From Candidatus Melainabacteria bacterium SSGW_16 (GTDB lineage: Bacteria; Cyanobacteriota; Vampirovibrionia; 2-02-FULL-35-15), in assembly GCA_004769085.1 (NCBI GenBank), contig DUDS01000003.1, positions 1 to 64,000 of the forward strand: 64,000 nucleotides of DNA. Direction: 5' to 3'. The position numbers and the translations under genes were made by a program. Numbering within the stretch: position 1 is the stretch's first letter; each line of letters begins with the position of its first letter. The notes beneath the pieces were generated by a model that saw nothing but the letters and a program-made list of their open reading frames with translations, made no database searches and was not told the DNA's origin. Shown piece by piece: positions 33,747-48,107 of this stretch.

Positions 33747-34187
33747 ATGCCTGTTGACACAAAATTTATTGGAAAAGAATATGATCCGGTTATCTATGTA
33801 ATCGGTGAAGAAAAAATTAAAGAGTATGCTTTTGCAGTAGGCGATCTTAATCCTCTTTATATAGACAGAGAGTTTGCAAAAAAGTCGAAGTATAAAACAA
33901 TAATTGCACCACCAATGTTTGTTGTTGTATTTGCCAGGGATACTATATTCAGTTTGTTCGAGGACAAAGAAATAAAAATTAACATGTCAATGCTTGTCCA
34001 TGGTGAGCAGGAATTTACTTTTCACAAAATCGTCAAAGCAAACGACATAATAAAATCAACCAGTAAAATTAAAAACATTTTTCAGAAAAATAACAATGAC
34101 TTTATAGAATTTGAGACAAAATCATATAACCAGAACAATGAACTCGTGGTAGAGGGTAACTGGATATTTATTATCCGTGGACAGTAA
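33747..34187 (+). CDS. MaoC-N-like hot-dog protein (HadA-type)
   Basis: The 146-residue hot-dog fold protein resembles the N-terminal half of MaoC/FAS1-type dehydratases: EEKIKEYAFAVGDLNPLYIDREFAKKSKYKTIIAPPMFVVVF. The position equal to the catalytic His of hydratase 2 is Tyr (NPLYID), so it is probably the non-catalytic partner. A second MaoC protein with intact Asp/His is at 36745-37131, and the two may form an (R)-hydratase heterodimer like mycobacterial HadAB. The genes are 2.5 kb apart on opposite strands, so the pairing is inference. Confidence 0.75.
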   Translation: MPVDTKFIGKEYDPVIYVIGEEKIKEYAFAVGDLNPLYIDREFAKKSKYKTIIAPPMFVVVFARDTIFSLFEDKEIKINMSMLVHGEQEFTFHKIVKANDIIKSTSKIKNIFQKNNNDFIEFETKSYNQNNELVVEGNWIFIIRGQ

Positions 34188-35669: not shown

Positions 35670-36776
35670 ATGTCAGCAAAAATAACATCTGGAAATCAGA
35701 GCTTTACTATTGATCAAATCATCTGGGACAGAGATTCATTTTTTATTGACTTTAATTCTTACTGGATAAGGTTAACAGCAACAATAGCACAGATGACTGC
35801 TGAAAGAGTTACAAATAACTGGAGCAGTTTTAATCTGATCCGTACTGAAGTAATAAAAACACTTGGAATAAACCCTGAAACCTCAGAATCACTTTCATCA
35901 TCTTCACCAATTAAAATTATGCCTGTAAATTCCTATCCATACATAATCGCTCCGTCTATTTCCAGAATCGCTTCTGATCATTCTCAGGAAACTATAATTG
36001 ACATTTTAAAAGAAGTTATAAGCAAATCCCTGACTGAATGTAGTAAGCATCTTAGTGAAACTGTAGTCAAAAAAAATGCTGATAAAGTTAAGAATTTACC
36101 CGGATCAGCAAACATTTTAATAACCAATGATTCCAAAGAAAATAATTCATTATTTTTAAAAGAATCAGGAATTGGAAATAATTTTCATAAGATTTTCCCT
36201 CAAAAAAACAAAGATGAACTAACTGATCTATTAACAGATAAATCGCTTTTCATTACTGACAATGAATTTCTTAAAAAATCATATAAAAAAAGAGGCTTTG
36301 ACAACATTTTGCTTACTGACAATCTGGACAATCTAACTATTATTCAGGAAGAGCAATCTGCAATAACCATTAATGTTGACGGGGCATCAAGGGGTAATCC
36401 CGGACCTTCAGCAATTGGAATTATATTTAAAGAAGGTACAAATATCATTCATGAAATATCTGAATACATAGGCAACCATACCAATAATTTTGCTGAATAT
36501 ACGGCTCTTATAAGAGCACTTGAAACAAGTCATGAAAAAGGATTTAAAAAAATTGAAATTAAATCTGATAGTGAACTAGTAGTAAAACAAATAAACAAAA
36601 CCTACAAAGTAAAAGATGCTGATATAAAAGAACTCTTTGATAAAGCATCAGCATTAATAAGCAAATTTCCTGATTTTAAAATTGTCCACATTCCAAGAGA
36701 AGAAAACTTAAAAGCAGACAAACTTGCTAATAATGCTTTAAATCTTATTCTTCAATCACAGCAAAAGCATTTGTAA
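35670..36776 (+). CDS. Fusion of a HAD-like domain with RNase HI
   Basis: The C-terminal part (about 231-360) is a complete RNase HI: ITINVDGASRGNPGP (catalytic Asp237), NNFAEYTALIRAL (Glu), IKSDSELVVKQI (Asp) and EENLKADKLANNAL (Asp). It cleaves RNA in RNA-DNA hybrids. The N-terminal part (1-225) looks like a HAD phosphatase: IIWDRDSFFID carries the DxD of motif I (20 and 22), ANILITNDSKENN matches motif II, and LFITDNEFLKKSYKKRGFDNILL matches motif IV. It lacks the normal DGT sequence, so activity is uncertain. The 3' end overlaps the convergent MaoC gene by 32 bp. Confidence 0.82.
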   Translation: MSAKITSGNQSFTIDQIIWDRDSFFIDFNSYWIRLTATIAQMTAERVTNNWSSFNLIRTEVIKTLGINPETSESLSSSSPIKIMPVNSYPYIIAPSISRIASDHSQETIIDILKEVISKSLTECSKHLSETVVKKNADKVKNLPGSANILITNDSKENNSLFLKESGIGNNFHKIFPQKNKDELTDLLTDKSLFITDNEFLKKSYKKRGFDNILLTDNLDNLTIIQEEQSAITINVDGASRGNPGPSAIGIIFKEGTNIIHEISEYIGNHTNNFAEYTALIRALETSHEKGFKKIEIKSDSELVVKQINKTYKVKDADIKELFDKASALISKFPDFKIVHIPREENLKADKLANNALNLILQSQQKHL

Positions 36777-37131
36777 CAACCTGCTCATTTTTCTGATTTT
36801 CAGCAAACAGATCAAAAGTAACAAGATTATTTTCAATCTTTGAAACTTTTCCTTTTATTGTAAGTTTATCAAGTGGTTTAACTATGCCGCGAAAACGAAC
36901 TCTGAATGATTTAATTTTCTCAGGATCTTTATCTCCCATTACTGCACGGTAAACAAAAGCCATTGTACAAAGTCCCTGTAATATAATTCCTCCAAGTCCT
37001 ACAGATTTTCCAAATTCATCATCAATATGAATAGTATTAAAATCTCTTGAAGCACCTGCATAATAATACGGTCTGTATTTATCTACCTCTATCTGAACCG
37101 GTTTAATCTCCTGACCAGGTATATAGCTCAT
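36745..37131 (-). CDS. MaoC-like (R)-specific enoyl hydratase (HadB-type)
   Basis: The 128-residue hot-dog protein has the hydratase signature ASRDFNTIHIDDEFGKSVGLGGIILQGL with catalytic Asp and His in place. This suggests reversible hydration of trans-2-enoyl-thioesters. The start is ATG 37131 (MSYIPGQ), preceded by SD GGAGG six nucleotides upstream. The in-frame ATG at 37146 lies in front of this SD and is rejected. It is 11 bp downstream of the PstS-like sensor gene in the same operon. Its partner may be the MaoC-N protein at 33747. Confidence 0.88.
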   Translation of the reverse strand: MSYIPGQEIKPVQIEVDKYRPYYYAGASRDFNTIHIDDEFGKSVGLGGIILQGLCTMAFVYRAVMGDKDPEKIKSFRVRFRGIVKPLDKLTIKGKVSKIENNLVTFDLFAENQKNEQVVTNAFAVIEE

Positions 37132-37142
37132 GATTTCCTCCG

Positions 37143-38519
37143 TCATTCTTCATCAGTTCTGACTGGTAGCAGTCCTGCTTTTTTCACAATATTCTGGCCT
37201 TTTTTAGATAAAACCCAGCCAATAAAGTCACTTATGCTTTCAGACTGATCAACAGCTGTAATCAGATACAAATAATGCGCAAGCGGATAATCACCATATC
37301 TTACTGCATTTTCATTTAATTTATGACCAATAAAAGGAGCCACAGGGACTGAATCAGGATAAGTTTTAATTTTCATATATTTTATTTTTTTATTTCCCCA
37401 GGGGAAATTGTTTGAATTAATAAAAGCAATGGCACCTTCACTCTGGGATATAAAATCAAATATTTCTTTGTTTGATTTTTTTCTAATAGGCTCACCAGGG
37501 AAATCAGTATTTTGCAGAATTCTGCTGAGTACAAAATCATTAGTACCGCTTCCTTTTTCTCTTATCACCGGTGCCAATGGTTTGTTAAAACTGCTTATAT
37601 CCTGCCAGTTCTGAACCTCACCATTAAATATTTTTTCCAGATCTTCAAGGCTTAGATCTTTTACAGGATTAGCAGCATTTACAGCTATAACAAGTGCATC
37701 AAGTGCAACCCTGTTTTCTACAAGCTCAATTCCATTTTGATTTGCCTTTTTCTGATCCTGGTGACTTACAGGCCTGCTTGAGTTTGCAACTTCAACATCA
37801 CCTGTGATAAGCGCTTTTATTCCGCTGTCAGAATCGGATTGTATAAGAGATACTTTATATTTTGGGTAATCAAGGATAAAAGCATTTTTCCACTTTTTTG
37901 ATAACGCTAGCAAGCTCGTAGAGCCTGATATCCTTAACCTGTTTGCTGGAACAGAACGAACAGTTTTTTTAGCTGTTTTATTTCCCTCAAACTGGACATG
38001 AGAACCAAGATTATTGAATGTAGTACCCAGTTGGTTTAATACTTCTGGTTTTGTAATATTGGTTACAAACAAATATACTACCCAGAAAGTAAATGCAAAT
38101 ATCACCATAAAAATCATTAAAATAACTATCACAGACCATCTTGAAACAGTTCCAGGGCTCTGGCTAGGAACCATTTTGGGTTCATCTGGTTTTTTAAATC
38201 CCTGAGCCGGAATGTCAGTTTTTGCTTCTTTTAAATTTCTTTTAATACTTTTAATAGCATTACCTAAAACATTTCCTATTTCTTCCCTGTTCCTGCCAAG
38301 CTGTGTGCTTATTGCATCTTTATTCAGATTACGAAAGTATCTTAATTCAACTATTTTTTTTTCTGCATCAGGCAGGAAAGATATTGCTTTTTTTACCTTA
38401 TCCCTGAGGGATTGTAATTCATTTACTGCAGACTTATCATATTTTTCATTTGGTTTAAGGTTTAAGATTATCTCTATGGATTTTTCATTTAACTCTTCAT
38501 AGAACTGTTTATTCTGCAT
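37143..38519 (-). CDS. Transmembrane protein: sigma70-region-4-like HTH, TM helix, PstS-like binding domain
   Basis: The 458-residue protein has three parts. Residues about 45-97 (ISFLPDAEKKIVELRYFRN, then LNKDAISTQLGRNREEIGNV) match sigma70 region 4, a DNA-binding helix-turn-helix. One strong membrane helix follows (about 128-152). Residues about 193-455 form a PstS-type substrate-binding protein: RISGSTSLLALSKKW, ANSSRPVS, LEDLEKIFNGEVQNW, REKGSGTNDFVL and YPLAHYLYLIT. A cytoplasmic HTH joined through one helix to an outer phosphate-like sensor suggests a ToxR-like one-component regulator. The ligand could be phosphate or another oxyanion. I know no standard family with this order. A MaoC gene follows in operon. 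Confidence 0.85.
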   Translation of the reverse strand: MQNKQFYEELNEKSIEIILNLKPNEKYDKSAVNELQSLRDKVKKAISFLPDAEKKIVELRYFRNLNKDAISTQLGRNREEIGNVLGNAIKSIKRNLKEAKTDIPAQGFKKPDEPKMVPSQSPGTVSRWSVIVILMIFMVIFAFTFWVVYLFVTNITKPEVLNQLGTTFNNLGSHVQFEGNKTAKKTVRSVPANRLRISGSTSLLALSKKWKNAFILDYPKYKVSLIQSDSDSGIKALITGDVEVANSSRPVSHQDQKKANQNGIELVENRVALDALVIAVNAANPVKDLSLEDLEKIFNGEVQNWQDISSFNKPLAPVIREKGSGTNDFVLSRILQNTDFPGEPIRKKSNKEIFDFISQSEGAIAFINSNNFPWGNKKIKYMKIKTYPDSVPVAPFIGHKLNENAVRYGDYPLAHYLYLITAVDQSESISDFIGWVLSKKGQNIVKKAGLLPVRTDEE

Positions 38520-38569
38520 AACAAGTTATATTTTAACTATTCCGACACCATATTATGAGAAAAGTAAAA

Positions 38570-39058: not shown

Positions 39059-39340
39059 TTATGCATCTGTGATATTTCGTGGCTTATTGTTAGATGCAAG
39101 CCTATCATTTCCCTGCATTAAATTAGTCAAATCATCCTTTGCCCCACTTGATAACCTGGAACCGGTAAAGAAGGAAGCAACTTGTTCACCTAATGTCTGG
39201 GCATTTCTAGCTGCTACATTTGGGGTCCTGTCAGCCTTTTTCTTTACACCAGCTGCTTTGGCAATTTCAGAAGATGCGATACGAGAAGGATCAAAATCTC
39301 CTCCAAGTCCGCCTATATTTCCTATTTCAAGCACAAACAT
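39059..39340 (-). CDS. Small Gly/Ala/Ser-rich protein with MFVL start
   Basis: I do not recognise this 93-residue protein. It begins MFVLEIGNIGGLGGDFDPSR, continues with Ala/Lys-rich helix IASSEIAKAAGVKKKA and ends in a polar, Asn-rich tail. No Sec signal or membrane helix. The opening MFVL followed by a strand with Gly recurs in the gene at 40534, so the two N-termini may be related. Low-complexity polar N-termini without a Sec signal are compatible with type III substrates, but this is only a guess. It has its own transcription unit. Confidence 0.55.
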   Translation of the reverse strand: MFVLEIGNIGGLGGDFDPSRIASSEIAKAAGVKKKADRTPNVAARNAQTLGEQVASFFTGSRLSSGAKDDLTNLMQGNDRLASNNKPRNITDA

Positions 39341-39504
39341 AATCTTCCTCTGCTTTCTATTTTACTTACTTTTGTTAACCTTTGTTTAACCTTACACCAC
39401 TATTGCACGCTTATATAAAGTAATAGTCCCCCCTTTTTTGATAGCATGAATATTAAATATTTCTAATATTGGCTAAATCTTAATATTTTGACTTAAAACA
39501 ACTA

Positions 39505-39536
39505 AAAAAGGGACTGTCATAGAGCAGTCCCTTTTA
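39505..39536 (-). terminator. Rho-independent terminator after the 39555 gene
   Basis: AAAAGGGACTG and CAGTCCCTTTT form an 11-bp stem with an 8-nt loop. On the minus strand it ends in a run of T. It lies 20 bp beyond the stop codon of the 39555-40016 gene. Confidence 0.85.
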
Positions 39537-39554
39537 AGCTTTAATTATAAAAAC

Positions 39555-40016
39555 CTATACTGACATACCATTTACTGCTTCTTTTAAGCGCTTATTTTCA
39601 TTTTGACGAAGGGTATCAATTGCACCATCTATCTGATCAGTATATGCCAGATTTGAAGCAAGTTGCGCATGTCTTTGTTTTGACATCTGTGCAATTTCAT
39701 TCATATCACCCATTGCCTGTCCATAAATTCTATTACCGAGTGAGTTGCCTATAAATTTACCAATGCCATTCCCAAGAGTATATCCTAATGCCATACCACC
39801 TGGTCCACCAAGTGCCCCGGCAGCAGTTCCTATAGTTCCTCCTAAAGCACTTACTCTTTGTACTAGCTTAGATAACCTCATCTGGAACTGAGCTCCCTGC
39901 TGGAGTGAATCCATATAATCCTGAAAATTTGCATTCAAGAGCAAAGTATACTTGCTGTGCCTACATGAATTGTCCACATAAAGATCGGTTAAAGTAGTAG
40001 GGTCATTAATATACAT
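39555..40016 (-). CDS. Uncharacterised protein with glycine-zipper hydrophobic segment
   Basis: The 153-residue protein starts MYINDPTTLTDLYVDNSC with no Sec signal. Residues about 50-95 are a glycine-zipper stretch (GGTIGTAAGALGGPGGMAL, then GYTLGNGIGKFIGNSLGNR) able to insert in or pack on membranes. It is flanked by amphipathic helices (FQMRLSKLVQRVSAL; AMGDMNEIAQMSKQRHAQL). The layout (helix, glycine-zipper, helix) resembles translocator or pore-type proteins, which is an inference only. It lies 29 bp after the 40046 gene on the same strand and ends at a clear terminator. Confidence 0.6.
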   Translation of the reverse strand: MYINDPTTLTDLYVDNSCRHSKYTLLLNANFQDYMDSLQQGAQFQMRLSKLVQRVSALGGTIGTAAGALGGPGGMALGYTLGNGIGKFIGNSLGNRIYGQAMGDMNEIAQMSKQRHAQLASNLAYTDQIDGAIDTLRQNENKRLKEAVNGMSV

Positions 40017-40045
40017 TTATATTCTCCTATAAACTTCTATAAAGC

Positions 40046-40315
40046 TTATGAATCTTTTACAAGGTCCCATGCTTTTTTCATGCTTTGTTTTTCTTCTTTT
40101 ATCATATTGATCCAGAATTCTTCTCTTTGACGTTGGTTTCCTATGTTTGCTCTGGTTACTGCAAGAATATGCCTTGCAACAGCTGGATCACCGTAGCCAT
40201 AAATAGCTAATTGAACTAATTGTTCAGCAAATGTATCCTCCTGTTGATATTGAGAGAGGCTTGACTGTGCAGTAGCTAATTCTGAAAGCGGGTTTACATA
40301 AGTTATAACTGGCAT
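40046..40315 (-). CDS. Small helical 89-aa protein
   Basis: I do not recognise it. It is a soluble alpha-helical protein: MPVITYVNPLSELATAQSSL, AEQLVQLAIYGYGDPAVARHIL, REEFWINMIKEEKQSMKKAWDL. No Sec signal. The ATG has an SD (GGAGG, eight nucleotides upstream, read on the minus strand). It is the first gene of a pair with the glycine-zipper protein, 29 bp downstream. Small helical proteins encoded just before translocator-like genes are often chaperones or needle-type subunits in type III systems; nothing here proves that. Confidence 0.6.
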   Translation of the reverse strand: MPVITYVNPLSELATAQSSLSQYQQEDTFAEQLVQLAIYGYGDPAVARHILAVTRANIGNQRQREEFWINMIKEEKQSMKKAWDLVKDS

Positions 40316-40464
40316 TGTTTTTCCTCCGGTTCTATAAGGATCTTTTCAGTTCGTTGTGTACGAACATGCATATTTATCCAGATCCCTGTTAAAGCAAAGT
40401 TATGAAATTTATTAATTTTTTCTAATTGAAACAAAAATAGAACTTAAGTACTAAAGGAACATAA

Positions 40465-40500
40465 AAAAAATGCACGCTTTTTTTTTTGCGTGCATTTTTT
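40465..40500. terminator. Bidirectional rho-independent terminator
   Basis: AAAAAATGCACGC pairs perfectly with GCGTGCATTTTTT across a 10-T loop. It has A and T tracts on both sides. It ends the minus-strand gene at 40534-40917. Confidence 0.85.
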
Positions 40501-40533
40501 CTTTTTTTGAAGTTGAACAACAGAGCTGGTAAA

Positions 40534-40917
40534 TTATCCACCGCCACCTTGTTGTAAGGATTTGGTGCTGGCAATACCTTTCTTGTCTTCGTCGATTTGA
40601 CTTTGAAGAGCTGATTCTTCTGTTCTCATCAAACCAAGGTCTGCTCTTATTTGTGACAATGCTTGTCTTGTGGTTTGTTCATTATCACTATCAAATACAG
40701 TTATGTTACTAGGTAGCTGGTAGCCTCCCTTATTTCCATCTGTATCTGTTAAACCAGCGAAATTTCCATTTATCAATCTGGTAGATAATACGCCTTCCAT
40801 GTCACTAATTGCTGCTTCAAGCTTTGAAATACGAGCCCTGACTTCTGAAAGCTGGGCAAGTTTATCATTGCCTTTTGATTGTAGTGGTCCAAAATCTATT
40901 GATACTAATACGAACAT
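40534..40917 (-). CDS. Small coiled-coil protein with MFVL start
   Basis: I do not recognise this 127-residue protein. Two coiled-coil segments (LAQLSEVRARISKLEAAISDME, about 20-45; TRQALSQIRADLGLMRTEES, about 83-105) flank a polar, Gly/Asn/Asp-rich middle. The tail is Gln/Gly-rich (KSLQQGGGG). It begins MFVLVSIDFGPLQ, like the 39059 gene. Coiled coil, polar linker, coiled coil and absent Sec signal suggest a filament-, needle- or tip-like protein, as inference. It has a clear terminator downstream and is divergent from the surface-protein gene at 41459. Confidence 0.6.
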   Translation of the reverse strand: MFVLVSIDFGPLQSKGNDKLAQLSEVRARISKLEAAISDMEGVLSTRLINGNFAGLTDTDGNKGGYQLPSNITVFDSDNEQTTRQALSQIRADLGLMRTEESALQSQIDEDKKGIASTKSLQQGGGG

Positions 40918-41458: not shown

Positions 41459-43831
41459 ATGCGAAGAAACAAGAAATTTCTTTCATTAATATCAATACTT
41501 CTTTCAGTCCTGCTCATTGGTCAAAGTGCAAATGTAGCACTTGCAGCAGGAAAGAGAGCAACACTTAATTTTGAATCTTCAGTAATACAAGGTAGCATTG
41601 CTTACCCAGAGAGAAATATTCTGAGCATAAAAGATGCGGGTGGAATAAGCTCAGTAACCATTTCTCCAGCAAAAGGAACTCCGGCAAGCATAAGATCAAT
41701 TTCACTTGGTGTAATTGACGGAAAAGTAGATCTTAGTGCCCTTGGAAGAATTCCAAGCGGAGCATATAATGTAAAAGCAAAAAAAGGTAAAAGAGTTTTA
41801 AAAGGAAAATTTGATTTTATTTCTCCGACAATTCTTGCAGGAAAAGTTGTGCTGCCATCCGGTGGTTTAACAAGCACCACAGCTGGTAGAACAATCAGGC
41901 ACCAAGAAGTAGAAGGTGCAACCGCAATAGTAACAACATACAATATTACTGGTTCATTAGAAGATGCTCAATCAGCAGTTGAAGTACCTGTGGTAGATGG
42001 CGTAATTGAGTATGCATGTGAAGGTAATCAAACCACTACAAATGGTGGAGACTACTTTGTAACAAGAGCAAGCGTACAAGATGCAGATGGTAATAATCTT
42101 GGTGACATAACATCATTACCTACAGGTGGCTCAGGTGATATAACCGTACCAGATGCAGATATATCAACAACTGCAACAACAAATACCACTGTAGCAATTG
42201 TTAATGAAAGTAAAACTAACGGGGTAGAAGTTGACGCAGTCCAAATCGCCAATGAAATTGCTCCTGAATTTGTTGCTTTAAATGAATCACAAACTTTACA
42301 AGATGGGTTAGCAGCCATACCTGGTTATACTGCAGGTGTTGCTGGAAATGTAATTGAAAATTTAGAAAATTCCTTTGAGTTTGAAAATTTCGACCCAATT
42401 GTTAATGGTATAACAAAAGCACCAAACATTAGTAATTTTAGTGATTTAGGAAACCTAGATGAAATAACAGCATCTGCACAGGCATTTGGAACAATGCCTC
42501 CGGGAATAGCATCAAAATTATCTCCTGATGGATTTAGCAAACTTCAAGAAGCAACTGGGATTGAACCAGGACTTCTTGAAGTAGATCAAGCCAGCCTGCA
42601 AAGCATTATTCAGGCTGGAGGTGCTCCACAGTTTAATGTTAACGGGAATGCATTAGCTAATGCAAAAGGAAATATTGTAATTCCTACAGGCGCAGTTCTT
42701 GATGCAGCAAACATACCAAGAGCTGCAACAGGAAATTTTACCTTTGGTCCTGGCTCTTTCTTAATAGATCCACTAAATGCAGGTTTACCTCCACTTGCTA
42801 GTTTTGCTGCAGCTATAGGTTCTCTCATTGCAGGAAATGTAGCAAATAATGTTCAACAATCAAACGCTAACATTCCTCAAGGTGCTACAGCTACAAACCT
42901 AGCTAACTTTGGGGTAACAGGTAACGTTGCATTTATCCCGCCAACTTTCAATTTTGGAGGGAACTTTAATATAAATAGTTTTCAAGCAGTAACAAATACT
43001 GGTATTCAAGCTGCACAAGTATTTAATTTAGGAAACCAAACTGGTGGACCAGGAAATGGAGCACAACATTTTACTGGAACACCAGATCAGCTTGCCGCAC
43101 TTCAAGATGCTCTGCAAAGCTTACCACCTGTTTCAGCAGGTGGACCTGGCGGAACCGGTCCTTCTTCTGGCCCCAGTGGTGGTCCTTCTGGTGGTCCCAG
43201 TGGTGGTGGCTTCGGATTCTTTGGTGGAGCAGCTCTCGGACTTACAAATGCAATTCAAGCCGCAGGTGCAAATGCAAGTGCAACAGCTTTAGGTGTACTT
43301 AATACACTGAGTGGTTTTGTTCCAACCTTTGGAGCTCCTCCTCCAGGATCGCTTCCAGCTATTTTATCGGGTACTCAATTTACAGAAGCTGTAAATAATC
43401 AACCTCCAATTCCAGGCGGTATTCCTCCAGGCGGTGCAATTCCTCCAGGTGGTGCAATTCCTCCAGGTGGCGCAATTCCCCCGGGTGGTGCAATTCCTCC
43501 AGGTGGTGCAATTCCTCCAGGTGGTGCAATTCCTCCAGGTGGCGCAATTCCTCCAGGTGGCGCAATTCCCCCGGGTGGTGCAATTCCTCCAGGTGGCGCA
43601 ATTCCCCCGGGTGGTGCAATTCCTCCAGGTGGTGCAATTCCTCCAGGTGGTGCAATTCCTCCAGGTGGCACAGCAGTTCCTCCAGAAGGTGCTCCTCCTC
43701 CAGGCGGATTTATACCTCCTCCAGACGGCGGCGGCACATTTATACCTCCTCCTGTATTTATACCTCCTCCAGACGCTCCACCACCACCACCACCTCCTCC
43801 TCCTCCTCCTCCTCCTCCACCTCCTCCATAA
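41459..43831 (+). CDS. Large secreted Pro/Gly-rich surface protein with 13 GGAIPP repeats
   Basis: The 790-residue protein starts with a signal peptide (RRNKKFLSLISILLSVLLIG, cleavage after ALAA). Residues about 30-150 are beta-rich with carboxypeptidase-regulatory-like spacing (GVIDGKVDLSALGRIPSGAY). The middle (about 200-570) is Ala/Asn/Gly-rich with no recognised domain, then a Ser/Gly/Pro region. From about 658 come thirteen exact GGAIPP units, then GGFIPPPDGG-type repeats and a final polyproline run ending in Pro. Such a tail could be rigid or ligand-binding. It has a strong SD and a terminator, and is followed by a NarL-type regulator. It may be an adhesin or an envelope matrix protein. 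Confidence 0.85.
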   Translation: MRRNKKFLSLISILLSVLLIGQSANVALAAGKRATLNFESSVIQGSIAYPERNILSIKDAGGISSVTISPAKGTPASIRSISLGVIDGKVDLSALGRIPSGAYNVKAKKGKRVLKGKFDFISPTILAGKVVLPSGGLTSTTAGRTIRHQEVEGATAIVTTYNITGSLEDAQSAVEVPVVDGVIEYACEGNQTTTNGGDYFVTRASVQDADGNNLGDITSLPTGGSGDITVPDADISTTATTNTTVAIVNESKTNGVEVDAVQIANEIAPEFVALNESQTLQDGLAAIPGYTAGVAGNVIENLENSFEFENFDPIVNGITKAPNISNFSDLGNLDEITASAQAFGTMPPGIASKLSPDGFSKLQEATGIEPGLLEVDQASLQSIIQAGGAPQFNVNGNALANAKGNIVIPTGAVLDAANIPRAATGNFTFGPGSFLIDPLNAGLPPLASFAAAIGSLIAGNVANNVQQSNANIPQGATATNLANFGVTGNVAFIPPTFNFGGNFNINSFQAVTNTGIQAAQVFNLGNQTGGPGNGAQHFTGTPDQLAALQDALQSLPPVSAGGPGGTGPSSGPSGGPSGGPSGGGFGFFGGAALGLTNAIQAAGANASATALGVLNTLSGFVPTFGAPPPGSLPAILSGTQFTEAVNNQPPIPGGIPPGGAIPPGGAIPPGGAIPPGGAIPPGGAIPPGGAIPPGGAIPPGGAIPPGGAIPPGGAIPPGGAIPPGGAIPPGGAIPPGGTAVPPEGAPPPGGFIPPPDGGGTFIPPPVFIPPPDAPPPPPPPPPPPPPPPPP
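43430..43663 (+). repeat. Tandem repeat, 13 x 18 bp (GGAIPP)
   Basis: Thirteen exact-length 18-bp units encode Gly-Gly-Ala-Ile-Pro-Pro. Variation is confined to synonymous third bases (GGT/GGC, CCT/CCC, CCA/CCG). Unit number probably varies between strains by slippage without frame loss. Confidence 0.95.
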
Positions 43832-43974: not shown

Positions 43975-44685
43975 ATGCTAGAAACAGTCACACAGGATAC
44001 TTTTGTAATTGCTGATGATCACCCGCCAATAAGGGCCTTCAGTAAAAACATCTTAAAAGAAAACTTCCCAAACTGTAATATCTTAGAAGCTGAAAATGGT
44101 TCTAAAGCAGTTGAGTTAAGTTTAAAGAACAAACCATCGCTTGTAATTATGGACATAGCTATGCAAGAACTGGATGGTATTGAAGCTACACAAAAAATCA
44201 TTAGCAGCCTTCCACAAACAGGTATTGTAATTTATTCAAACTATGGTGATGAAGTTTATGTCAGGAAAATCAGACAGACTGTACCAGTTGACAGAGCATT
44301 TGCATATGTTTTAAAAACTGCCAGTCAGGAACAGTTTACCCAGGCTATAAAACAGGTTCACTCGGGTGAAGTATGGCTGCACCCTGATGTTCAGCAGGTA
44401 GTATGGAGACTGAACCTGAATAAAAAATCCACACAGCTTACAGATATTCAGCAGCAAATTTTACTTGCGGTTAGTATTGGAAAAACAAATGACTGGATTG
44501 CAGAAAAACTTTACATGAGCAATAAAACTATTCAATATCACCTATACTCTATATACGATAAACTTGGAATTAACAGCGCTGCTAAAAAAGTTAATCCACG
44601 AAATGAAGTGGTTTGTGTTTCACTTTTAAGAGGTTTAATTGATGCTCAGGATTTAAAAGCTGCTTATGAAAAGGAAAACCATTAA
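43975..44685 (+). CDS. NarL/FixJ-type response regulator
   Basis: The 236-residue regulator has an N-terminal receiver (about 8-130) with the acidic pair DDH, phospho-acceptor Asp in LVIMDIAMQELDG (about 61) and Lys in YVLKTAS. A C-terminal LuxR-type HTH (about 155-230) follows: LTDIQQQILLAVSIGKTNDWIAEKLYMSNKTIQYHLYSIYDKLG. It is transcribed toward, and likely regulates, the exported proteins downstream (44687 and 45345) or the surface protein upstream. No partner kinase is adjacent. Confidence 0.93.
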   Translation: MLETVTQDTFVIADDHPPIRAFSKNILKENFPNCNILEAENGSKAVELSLKNKPSLVIMDIAMQELDGIEATQKIISSLPQTGIVIYSNYGDEVYVRKIRQTVPVDRAFAYVLKTASQEQFTQAIKQVHSGEVWLHPDVQQVVWRLNLNKKSTQLTDIQQQILLAVSIGKTNDWIAEKLYMSNKTIQYHLYSIYDKLGINSAAKKVNPRNEVVCVSLLRGLIDAQDLKAAYEKENH

Positions 44686-44686
44686 A

Positions 44687-45358
44687 ATGGGCAAACCTGC
44701 ATTTAATGAATTAACTAATTCGTTGTGTATAGTTTTGTTACTTATATGTCTGAGCTTTAATTCTGCTTTTGCATACTCGCATAAATCAGCATCAACACAG
44801 ACAGTCGTAACATATGCCAGAAATCTTCTTTACAGCATAGTAGACAGTAATTTCCGTGGAAGCTGGGTAATAGATACAAATGAAGCAGATAAGGTTAAGC
44901 AAATCACCCAGAAAATACAAAAATCATTCACTAGTCTTGCAAATATTAAAATCGGGGCAAGTTCCAGACAAATAAGGGAATTATTAAAAAATCCCGTAGA
45001 AATAAGAAACAATGGGAAAATATGGATTTATGGCACTCCTAAAGGTAATGGAACCTATGAGGACCTGTTTGAAGTCTTTTTTGATGATAAGCAGGATAAA
45101 GTGACAGGGATCATATCATTCAATCCTAAAAATATAGTAGAAGATATAGGTGTAAATGTTGGTGATTCGATTGATAAAATGATTTCGGTTTATGGTGAGC
45201 CTGTTGATGAAAAAGATTTTATTGAAGACCCTGATAATAAGGAGTACCTTGGATTATATTACCTTTATCCTAGATCAGGTGTTGGCTTCCTTGTTGGACA
45301 GGAAAAAGCATCAAAAGATTTGCTTGTTCACGGAGTCCTTGTTTTTGGAAAATCATAA
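44687..45358 (+). CDS. Secreted protein with OmlA/BamE-like repeat
   Basis: About 223 residues with a signal peptide (SLCIVLLLICLSFNSAFAY). Two similar halves follow. Each has a strand-loop motif resembling SmpA/OmlA: IKIGASSRQIRELLKNPVEIRNNGKIWIYG, and VNVGDSIDKMISVYGEPVDEKD with YYLYPRSGVGFLV. It is an exported protein of unknown role. I place the start at ATG 44687, just after the regulator's stop. ATG 44666, which overlaps it, is also possible. The CHAT protease gene overlaps its end. Confidence 0.7.
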   Translation: MGKPAFNELTNSLCIVLLLICLSFNSAFAYSHKSASTQTVVTYARNLLYSIVDSNFRGSWVIDTNEADKVKQITQKIQKSFTSLANIKIGASSRQIRELLKNPVEIRNNGKIWIYGTPKGNGTYEDLFEVFFDDKQDKVTGIISFNPKNIVEDIGVNVGDSIDKMISVYGEPVDEKDFIEDPDNKEYLGLYYLYPRSGVGFLVGQEKASKDLLVHGVLVFGKS

Positions 45359-48107
45359 AACAATTAAAAAAATATTTGCTGCACTAGCTATATTTCTATG
45401 TTTATTATTTTTCTTACCTGCTGCGAAATCCCATCACGATGAATCTCACAATCCACCTTTAATTTACAGTATTACTCCCCAATTTATCCCTCAGGGACAA
45501 ACAACAACAGTCATAGTAACCGGTGAAAACCTTCCCAGTATAGTAGGTGTTGACGGAGATATTTTTGCAGTAATTTTAAAAAAAGACAAAGCAAATAAAT
45601 CACTTACAATCCAACTTTCTGCAAGTCCAACAGCACTTGGCCCCAAAAACCTTATACTAAGAAATGAATATGGCGTTGAAACTACTTTTCCATTTCAGGT
45701 AATACCATCTGGTTCTCCACAGGTTGAAAACATTGAACCAAATATTGCATATCCGGGGGACACTATTCTTGCTAGGATGTATGGAAAGAATCTTACAAGC
45801 CCTTTTATTGCAGCACTAAGCGAACAACTTTTAATAATCTCTTCAAGACCAACAAATGACGGATCAGTAGTTGATTTAACAATTTCTGTGAACCAGGATA
45901 TTCAGCCAGGCACTTATCCAATTATAATAAGCACCCCTTATGGACAATCTGAAATCCCTTTTACTATTCTTAATTCTTCAAATAAAACAACAAGCTCTGA
46001 TTATTTTAATCCGGATCCATACTCACCGGGAATTTTTTCTGTGGAGTTTGATCAGTTAAGCAAAACAGTAACAATTAAAGGTTCAATGTTCGATCCAAAT
46101 CCATTGAATAACATTGTTACCTTGCTTGAAAACAGCGATGGATCAGTTATAGGCAGACAGGTGGAAATATCCTACGCAGATAACAATGAAATTGTAATTA
46201 ATTTGCCTGATGGTATTACTTCTGATTCACTTAGCTTTGCAGTCTCAAATTCAGAAGGAAGATCCAGTAATATAAAAACCGTAAGTCTTGAACCGATAAC
46301 AGAAACTGATTTATCAGACACAACAACCACAGACCAGTCAGAAAAAGATGCACAGGCAGACACTTCAGCAATGTCAGGAGGAGGTTTTATTGATCTTAGT
46401 ACTACTGTTGCTTCTAGCCCTGTAAAGCCAGTTCAGCAGGATACAGTAAACCTTCCAAAAGATACTCAGACACACGATCAAAATAAACCTGCTGATAAGC
46501 CAGTCACTTCTGTTACACAAGGAACTACAGAACTTATAGAAGACCCAAGCATTGTACAGAATGTTCACAATCTTACACAGTACTTATTAAGCTCTACTGA
46601 AGGCACAAAAAAAGAAGAGATTTCAGAACCAAGAATCAATGAAATAAAGGATCCAGCCAAAATTATCTCTACTATTGAAGAAACAAAACAAATTAAAGAC
46701 CAGGCAGATTTAATTATGCTTGCACTGGATAATGCAAAGGACAATGTCGAACTTCTTGATGCATTGAAAAGATCAGAAACATTAAAGTCAAAAGTTGATG
46801 AGCTTGAAAAACTGCTCAGTGTTGAAAATCAAAAGCACAAACCTGATCAGAAAAAACTTGCACAGTACCAAAAACTCCTTGCTTCAGCAAGTGCAGAATC
46901 AAAATCAAAGACATTTGAATTATTAAATAATTTACTTAAATATAAACCTCAGCTGAAAAATCTTTTTAGCCAAAAACCATTTGATCTCGCTGCAATACAG
47001 CCAAACATTCCTGATGATTCAATTATCCTTCAGTATGTCCCTACAGAAGAAGGACTAATAATATTTGCAGTAGACAATAAAAACTTAAAAACAAGAATAA
47101 ATAAAAATATTACAAAAGATATTTTAAACAGGGAAGTACAGGCTTACAGACAGCTATTTGAAAAAGAAATTGAAAAAATTAAGTTGACCGGCAGAGTAAC
47201 ACCTATTCTGAGCTGGAAAGCTAATAATACAAACCTCTATAAAAAAGAAATCAGACCATTAAAATTAAAAAGTGTCTTTCTCTACAATGCTCTTATAGAG
47301 CCAGTTGAAAGAGATATTACAGGAAAGAAGAATATTGCAATTATTGCAAATGGGTGGCTCAGATATCTGCCATTCCAGTCTCTGGCAAAACTCACCGAGG
47401 ATGACAATCTGAAATTCCTCATTGCAGACAAATCTATTACATACCTGGACAGCGTAATAGCTGTAAGTAAAAACTCCTCAACTGCTCTGAATAATAAATC
47501 ATTAATAACTGTTTTTGCAAATCCAGATGGCTCATTAAATGGTGCAAACAAAGAAGCAGAAATTATCACAAAGCTATTCAGTAAAACTGTTACAAGTCTT
47601 GTACAAAGATCATTTAACATACCACTCATCAATGAGGTTTCAAAAAAAGCTGATATACTTCACCTGGCCACACATGGATATCTTGACAGTAAAAACATAC
47701 AGTCCAGTTATCTCGTTTCCGGGAAAAAGCAAAACAGTAAATCACCTACACAGACAAAAATATTCCTTAAAGACATTTATGATTTGAATCTAAGCAACTG
47801 CAAACTCGTAGTTTTAAGTGGTTGTGATACAGGAACACTTGGCAGTTTATCAGGTGAGCCAGATGATATTGTAGGAAGCCTGGCAACAGCTTTCAGGGTA
47901 GCCGGTGCAAATACAATTCTGGCTAGTTTATGGAAGGCTCATGATGAAGCTACAAAAGTAATAATGCAGAACTTTTATCAAAATCTTAAAAGCGGTCAGA
48001 ACAAAGCTGAATCACTCAGAAAAGCACAGCTTGCATTAAAAGAAAATCCTCAGTACAGCCACCCATTATTCTGGTCTGTATTTAATCTTATTGGTGACTG
48101 GAGATAA
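45345..48107 (+). CDS. Exported TIG/IPT-CHAT protease
   Basis: About 920 residues. A hydrophobic signal (IKKIFAALAIFLCLLFFLPA, ending AAKS) precedes IPT/TIG-type beta domains (about 38-300: PPLIYSITPQFIPQGQTTTV; PQVENIEPNIAYPGDTILA). An acidic linker and coiled coil (about 340-560) follow, then a C-terminal CHAT domain (about 570-920). The catalytic dyad is His777 in LATHG and Cys827 in SGCDTG. CHAT is a caspase-like Cys protease fold, usually cytoplasmic with TPR repeats, so an exported version is unusual. The start TTG at 45345 (GGAG nine nucleotides upstream) overlaps the previous gene, showing coupling. The long frame from 45192 is rejected because it runs inside that gene. Confidence 0.88.
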   Translation: MENHKTIKKIFAALAIFLCLLFFLPAAKSHHDESHNPPLIYSITPQFIPQGQTTTVIVTGENLPSIVGVDGDIFAVILKKDKANKSLTIQLSASPTALGPKNLILRNEYGVETTFPFQVIPSGSPQVENIEPNIAYPGDTILARMYGKNLTSPFIAALSEQLLIISSRPTNDGSVVDLTISVNQDIQPGTYPIIISTPYGQSEIPFTILNSSNKTTSSDYFNPDPYSPGIFSVEFDQLSKTVTIKGSMFDPNPLNNIVTLLENSDGSVIGRQVEISYADNNEIVINLPDGITSDSLSFAVSNSEGRSSNIKTVSLEPITETDLSDTTTTDQSEKDAQADTSAMSGGGFIDLSTTVASSPVKPVQQDTVNLPKDTQTHDQNKPADKPVTSVTQGTTELIEDPSIVQNVHNLTQYLLSSTEGTKKEEISEPRINEIKDPAKIISTIEETKQIKDQADLIMLALDNAKDNVELLDALKRSETLKSKVDELEKLLSVENQKHKPDQKKLAQYQKLLASASAESKSKTFELLNNLLKYKPQLKNLFSQKPFDLAAIQPNIPDDSIILQYVPTEEGLIIFAVDNKNLKTRINKNITKDILNREVQAYRQLFEKEIEKIKLTGRVTPILSWKANNTNLYKKEIRPLKLKSVFLYNALIEPVERDITGKKNIAIIANGWLRYLPFQSLAKLTEDDNLKFLIADKSITYLDSVIAVSKNSSTALNNKSLITVFANPDGSLNGANKEAEIITKLFSKTVTSLVQRSFNIPLINEVSKKADILHLATHGYLDSKNIQSSYLVSGKKQNSKSPTQTKIFLKDIYDLNLSNCKLVVLSGCDTGTLGSLSGEPDDIVGSLATAFRVAGANTILASLWKAHDEATKVIMQNFYQNLKSGQNKAESLRKAQLALKENPQYSHPLFWSVFNLIGDWR

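What the first reader, a model, noticed from the sequence alone, without database searches (positions are those of the whole stretch)
37143..38519. Single-pass protein joining a sigma70 region-4-like HTH to a PstS-like sensor
DNA-binding motif in the cytoplasmic half (FLPDAEKKIVELRYFRN...), one TM helix, and a phosphate-binding-protein fold outside (GSTSLL, SRPVS, GSGTNDF). This would be a membrane-bound one-component regulator with an SBP as sensor, transducing ligand directly to promoters or RNA polymerase. It is followed in the operon by a MaoC-type hydratase gene, which gives a possible target pathway. I know of no named family with this order.
Basis: partly seen in the sequence, partly recalled or inferred. 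Interest (0 to 1): 0.78.

Follow-up and report, generated by a model that had tools for sequence, protein, structure and literature searches.

The report
Phosphate-type sensor fused to sigma-factor fragment
In an uncultured order of non-photosynthetic cyanobacterial relatives, one membrane protein joins an outside phosphate-binding-type sensor to an inside fragment of a flagellar-type sigma factor; it is real and conserved, but the part that would read DNA is its least conserved folded part, so it may signal by gripping transcription proteins rather than promoters.

Summary
The protein is real: 458 aa on the minus strand, 37143-38519. It has a sigma70 region-4-type helical domain (residues 1-99), one membrane helix (127-155) and a PstS-like binding domain (about 191-452). 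All 11 genomes of its order (Ca. Melainabacteria/Caenarcaniphilales-type groundwater MAGs) carry one copy in the same place; in one fragmented genome it is split over two contigs. A divergent form occurs in a second family of the class. The cytoplasmic domain resembles the end of a FliA/WhiG-like sigma factor of the same genomes, encoded beside flhB. New here: across the order the DNA-reading helix is the least conserved folded part (32% identity versus 59% for the preceding helices), whereas in three true sigma factors of the same genomes it is 87-98% conserved. Both linkers are long, variable and predicted disordered. The binding pocket is invariant. A small FlgM-like protein, candidate anti-sigma-28, was found at one syntenic site in 10 of 11 genomes. 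I favour a membrane-tethered sigma-28 mimic that binds proteins (anti-sigma or RNA polymerase) under control of a phosphate-type sensor; confidence is moderate and no interaction was shown. Direct promoter reading is possible but weakened. The architecture is unnamed in the libraries searched.

The parts
37143..38519 (-). Complete fusion gene, 458 aa (P0001)
   Evidence: orthologues in all 11 genomes of the order, 42-52% identity
38223..38519 (-). Cytoplasmic domain, residues 1-99: five helices, like the sigma 3.2-4 part of a FliA/WhiG-type sigma factor
   Evidence: AF2 helices 4-19, 29-47, 51-61, 67-74, 78-99; hhalign to in-genome sigma S1, E=1.2e-13, 93 columns
38241..38384 (-). Sigma70 region-4 match, residues 46-93
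   Evidence: PF04545
38229..38294 (-). Position of the recognition helix, residues 76-97; least conserved folded part
38145..38222 (-). Cytoplasmic linker, residues 100-125, low confidence, variable length
   Evidence: pLDDT about 34 for 101-120; 26-55 aa, 13% identity
38055..38141 (-). Single transmembrane helix, residues 127-155; N-in/C-out inferred
37950..38054 (-). Extracytoplasmic linker, residues 156-190, mostly disordered
37164..37949 (-). PstS-like binding domain, residues 191-452
   Evidence: PF12849 E=4.7e-38; Foldseek to PstS
37542..37562 (-). Oxyanion pocket motif R320-x-x-GSGT326; with S200, S202, S230, S248, invariant in the 10 full-length copies
38530..38535 (-). Conserved TAAAAT/TAGAAT box just before the start codon, -10-like
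   Evidence: Present in 11 of 11 genomes
36745..37146 (-). Downstream MaoC/HadB-like hydratase gene; start more likely at 37131 after GGAGG

Best explanation
A single-pass membrane sensor whose inner output is a captured sigma-28-type region 3.2-4 fragment. Outside, the PstS-like domain binds a phosphate-like oxyanion (pocket intact: shown; ligand: inferred). Inside, the sigma-like domain keeps its fold and a conserved non-DNA part while its DNA-reading helix has drifted (shown). I infer that it works by protein contact, as a sigma mimic or decoy: binding the FlgM-like anti-sigma, the sigma factor S1 or its polymerase site, so that ligand state changes how much S1 is free. Flexible linkers suggest control by clustering, a partner or proteolysis rather than a rigid push through the helix (inferred).
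For: Architecture in all 11 genomes of the order. The N-domain profile hits S1 with 44-50 bits against 27 or less for the other in-genome sigmas scored; hhalign to S1 1.2e-13 including an N-terminal EKxxExIL helix, though that helix alone scores only E=0.012. S1 best matches FliA_WhiG, E=2e-19, and lies beside flhB/sctU. Recognition-helix conservation is inverted relative to S1, S2 and S3. Variable disordered linkers. Pocket residues invariant. FlgM-like proteins: PF04316 is the only family matched by all 9 members scanned, best E=7.3e-5, all at one syntenic site. PhyR is a known precedent for sigma mimicry (PMC4598750).
Against: No interaction was tested. FlgM candidates are below the Pfam cut-off and hit no FlgM structure in a profile search. 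The 64-column domain tree does not join the fusion to S1. FlgM contacts sigma domains 2 and 4 in FliA (PMC4598750), and the fusion has no domain 2. Variability of the recognition helix could reflect changing DNA targets. The fusion gene is not beside S1 or the FlgM-like gene. The second family's N-domain has no recognisable region 4.
Confidence: 0.4

Rival explanations
1. Membrane-bound one-component regulator that binds promoter DNA through the region-4 HTH when the PstS-like domain binds or loses ligand.
For: HTH fold intact, about 1.3-1.5 A from sigmaE region 4 solved on -35 DNA; position 78 is basic in 8 of 11 members and position 83 is Lys in 7 of 11.
Against: The reading helix is the least conserved folded part (32%), the reverse of real sigma factors in the same genomes; position 82, aligned with the sigma70 R588 site by my own mapping, is never basic.
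Confidence: 0.25
2. A membrane-tethered phosphate-binding protein serving uptake (for instance for the pstCA operon that lacks pstS in most of these genomes); the sigma-like domain is an anchor or relic.
For: pstCA found in 10 of 11 genomes; pstS precedes it only in G002 and G004, and the G008 locus is cut inside pstC so its upstream side cannot be judged; no PiT transporter found in the order; SBP pocket intact.
Against: G001 (98% complete) gave no pstC hit yet keeps the fusion; another plain SBP is present in these genomes; the N-domain before its last two helices is as conserved as the SBP (52-56% versus 57%), unlike a relic.
Confidence: 0.2
3. The cytoplasmic domain contacts RNA polymerase (beta-flap) directly and tethers or recruits it, without an anti-sigma.
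For: The part conserved in the fusion (34-65) corresponds to region 4.1 of sigma factors.
Confidence: 0.12

Closest known systems
FliA/WhiG-type sigma-28 factors (TIGR02479), region 4
   Same: Domain fold and helix order; nearest in-genome relative is S1 beside flhB
   Different: No region 2; membrane-fused; recognition helix not conserved
PstS family, TIGR02136 / PF12849
   Same: Same fold, oxyanion pocket motifs kept
   Different: No own signal peptide; scores 168.7 against cut-off 206.6; attached to a cytoplasmic domain through a TM helix
PhyR sigma-mimic response regulators (PMC4598750)
   Same: Sensor plus sigma-like domain; proposed protein-binding output
   Different: PhyR has sigma2- and sigma4-like parts and a receiver domain, with no membrane span or PstS-like sensor; binding to an anti-sigma is proven there, not here
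ToxR/CadC membrane one-component regulators (own knowledge)
   Same: Cytoplasmic HTH, single TM helix, extracytoplasmic sensor
   Different: Those use an OmpR-type winged helix; here sigma region 4 and a PstS-like sensor
Cyanobacterial CHAT-TM-PBP_like_2 proteins (e.g. L097)
   Same: Cytoplasmic module, hydrophobic segment, PstS-like domain in that order
   Different: Cytoplasmic module is CHAT, not a sigma fragment

Membership tests
Sigma70 region 4 (PF04545) | Profile match above the curated score and region-4 fold | tested here: met
   25.3 bits against 24.1 for the isolated domain, though 21.2 for the whole protein; 11 of 11 genomes over cut-off; fold
Functional sigma-70 factor | Region 2 (core and -10 binding) present | tested here: not met
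   No region 2 match; only about 45 residues precede region 4
Functional sigma-70 factor | Conserved -35-reading helix | tested here: not met
   32% identity against 87-98% in S1-S3
PstS (TIGR02136) | Score above curated cut-off | tested here: not met
   168.7 against 206.6 bits
PstS (PF12849 PBP_like_2 fold) | Fold and oxyanion pocket residues | tested here: met
PstS | Binds phosphate and feeds PstCAB | not testable with these tools
   Needs purified protein and transport assays
Membrane one-component regulator | One TM helix between cytoplasmic HTH and outer sensor | tested here: met
   orientation inferred from charge and domain type
Membrane one-component regulator | Specific DNA binding | tested here: inconclusive
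   Fold retained, reading helix not conserved
Sigma mimic (PhyR-like) | Binds an anti-sigma factor | not testable with these tools
   FlgM-like candidate found, binding untested
Sigma mimic (PhyR-like) | sigma2- and sigma4-like parts plus receiver | tested here: not met
   Only a sigma4-type part and a PstS-like sensor

The most novel reading that the evidence does not exclude
A transmembrane sigma-28 mimic: extracellular phosphate-type ligand changes the ability of a captured region-4 domain to titrate a FlgM-like anti-sigma, thereby setting the activity of the flagellar-type sigma factor without kinase, receiver or DNA binding.
Probability: 0.18. Interest if true: 0.85.

Novelty: new variant of a known kind. 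Interest (0 to 1): 0.57.

Why it matters
If it works as proposed, it would be a one-protein route from an outside nutrient to a sigma factor, extending sigma mimicry (known in PhyR) to a membrane sensor. If it instead reads DNA, it would be an unusual membrane regulator with a sigma region 4 as its DNA-binding part. Either way it is a conserved, single-copy, order-wide protein of an uncultured sister lineage of photosynthetic cyanobacteria, and it yields a testable sigma/anti-sigma set (fusion, S1, FlgM-like).

Tried and rejected
Frameshift or assembly fusion: rejected, 10 intact orthologues plus one contig-broken copy. Chance HTH: rejected, 11 of 11 members match. MaoC as regulatory target: not supported beyond synteny. 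Domain tree to prove descent from S1: too short, unresolved, one in-genome sigma misplaced inside the fusion clade. N-terminal helix alone against S1: not significant. PDB profile search for FlgM-like proteins: no FlgM hit. Literature searches for a published sigma-region-4/PstS membrane fusion gave nothing relevant. A conserved regulatory site upstream: only a -10-like box seen. Receiver domain in cyanobacterial L087: not confirmed by Pfam.

Full report
Observation. The ORF 37143-38519 lies on the minus strand and encodes 458 aa. Pfam finds PBP_like_2 at residues 189-439 (E=4.7e-38) and Sigma70_r4 at 46-93. The region-4 score is below the curated cut-off for the whole protein (21.2 bits) but above it for residues 1-100 alone (25.3 bits), and every one of 11 orthologues is above it in the genome scan. 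Best NCBIfam matches are PstS TIGR02136 (168.7 bits, cut-off 206.6) and, for the N-domain, sigma-70/FliA/WhiG types.

Structure. AlphaFold2 on 16 homologues gives helices 4-19, 29-47, 51-61, 67-74 and 78-99, a long helix 127-155 as the membrane span, and an SBP from about 194, mostly pLDDT above 90; residues 100-123 and 161-189 are below 50. The isolated N-domain folds the same way. Foldseek places it only among sigma-factor region 4 structures and sigma-RNAP models in the 50 hits listed; E-values are weak, as expected for a small domain (best 3.7e-3), but 60 residues superpose on sigmaE region 4 at 1.3 A. The SBP matches PstS structures.

Distribution. One full-architecture gene occurs in each of the 11 genomes of the order, with about 15-20 kb of shared gene order in most of the fetched stretches. 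Named records are 'Candidatus Melainabacteria' and 'Caenarcanales' MAGs, several from groundwater. A class-wide sample of 240 genomes adds only eight divergent members in one other family. Those keep the layout and a weakly alignable N-domain (hhalign E=1.2e-5) but have no recognisable region 4, have lost the pocket Arg, and sit in another context, near dnaN in some. Cyanobacteria proper contain at least one CHAT + hydrophobic segment + PBP_like_2 protein, so the 'inner module-TM-PstS' plan is not unique.

Origin of the inner domain. Scored with the fusion N-domain profile, a 257-aa sigma factor S1 of the same genomes gives 44-50 bits over nearly the whole domain; the other in-genome sigmas scored give 27 or less. 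Profile alignment to S1 has E=1.2e-13 over 93 columns. S1-like sigmas elsewhere in the class score 35-54 bits. S1 best fits FliA_WhiG (E=2e-19, below the cut-off) and lies beside a FlhB/SctU export gene. Published work reports flagellar genes in several Melainabacteria and shared flagella genes in Caenarcaniphilales (PMC3787301, PMC4040986). The descent from S1 is not proven: the short-domain tree leaves the fusion as a near-separate clade, and the extra N-terminal helix alone is not significant (E=0.012).

Does it read DNA? Mean pairwise identity across the order is 32% in the recognition helix (columns 76-97) and 59% in columns 34-65 (p=3e-4 by Mann-Whitney on columns). In the controls from the same genomes the recognition helix is 87% (S1), 98% (ECF-type S2) and 98% (S3). 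Selection thus protects the fold and the preceding helices, but not one DNA-reading surface. This does not exclude DNA binding with shifting targets. Both linkers vary in length (26-55 and 33-52 aa) and are 13-16% identical.

Ligand. S200, S202, S230, S248, R320, S324, G325 and T326 are invariant in the 10 full-length copies, matching the PstS-type pocket motifs seen in the alignment to PstS structures; which of them touch the ligand is inferred from established PstS structures, not tested. Phosphate is therefore likely but unproven. In this order pstCA was found in 10 of 11 genomes, but pstS precedes it only in G002 and G004; G001 gave no pstC hit and keeps the fusion. PhoU domains were found in all 11 and no PiT in any.

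Possible partner. Ten weak FlgM hits prove to be orthologous 53-70 aa proteins at one syntenic place beside mnmE and groESL. Scanned singly against all of Pfam, all 9 aligned members match FlgM, and no other family matches more than one of them (best E=7.3e-5, all below the cut-off). A profile search of PDB did not hit FlgM. They are candidates only.

Interpretation. I favour a membrane sigma-28 mimic acting by protein contact (0.40), then direct DNA reading (0.25), tethered SBP for uptake (0.20), and direct polymerase contact (0.12). PhyR shows that sigma mimicry exists (PMC4598750). Shown: architecture, conservation, predicted fold, pocket motifs, inverted helix conservation. Inferred: ligand, topology, partner, direction of control.

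Caution on the operon. A MaoC gene begins about 0-40 nt downstream in all 11 genomes and a TAAAAT/TAGAAT box sits just before the fusion start in 11 of 11, so co-transcription is plausible, but shared gene order over the whole region makes this weak evidence of function.

Noticed in passing
window 39059-40917 (minus): Cluster of small conserved ORFs (93, 153, 89, 127 aa), no useful Pfam match; two begin MFVL, and a MFILSIVPIPL-type relative of the 127-aa one recurs in one or two copies near the fusion in several related genomes.
   Followed up: partly
L194-L203: pstCA operon without an adjacent pstS in most genomes of the order; pstS present at the same site only in G002 and G004.
   Followed up: partly
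L260:5743-5952 and syntenic loci L262-L269: Small FlgM-like proteins (53-70 aa) beside mnmE and groESL, candidate anti-sigma-28 of this order.
   Followed up: partly
window 41459-43831 (+): 790-aa protein with many IPPGGA repeats and a polyproline end, no Pfam match.
   Followed up: no
window 43975-48107 (+): Response regulator with GerE output followed by a conserved 230-aa protein and a 971-aa CHAT-domain protein.
   Followed up: no
window 33747-34187 (+) and 36745-37146 (-): HadA-like and HadB-like MaoC hydratase genes about 2.5 kb apart on opposite strands, conserved in the order.
   Followed up: no
G001:C48:39813-39974 and G003:C6:2987-3148: Strong Sigma70_r4 matches inside 1027- and 900-aa open frames, possibly other long sigma fusions.
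   Followed up: no
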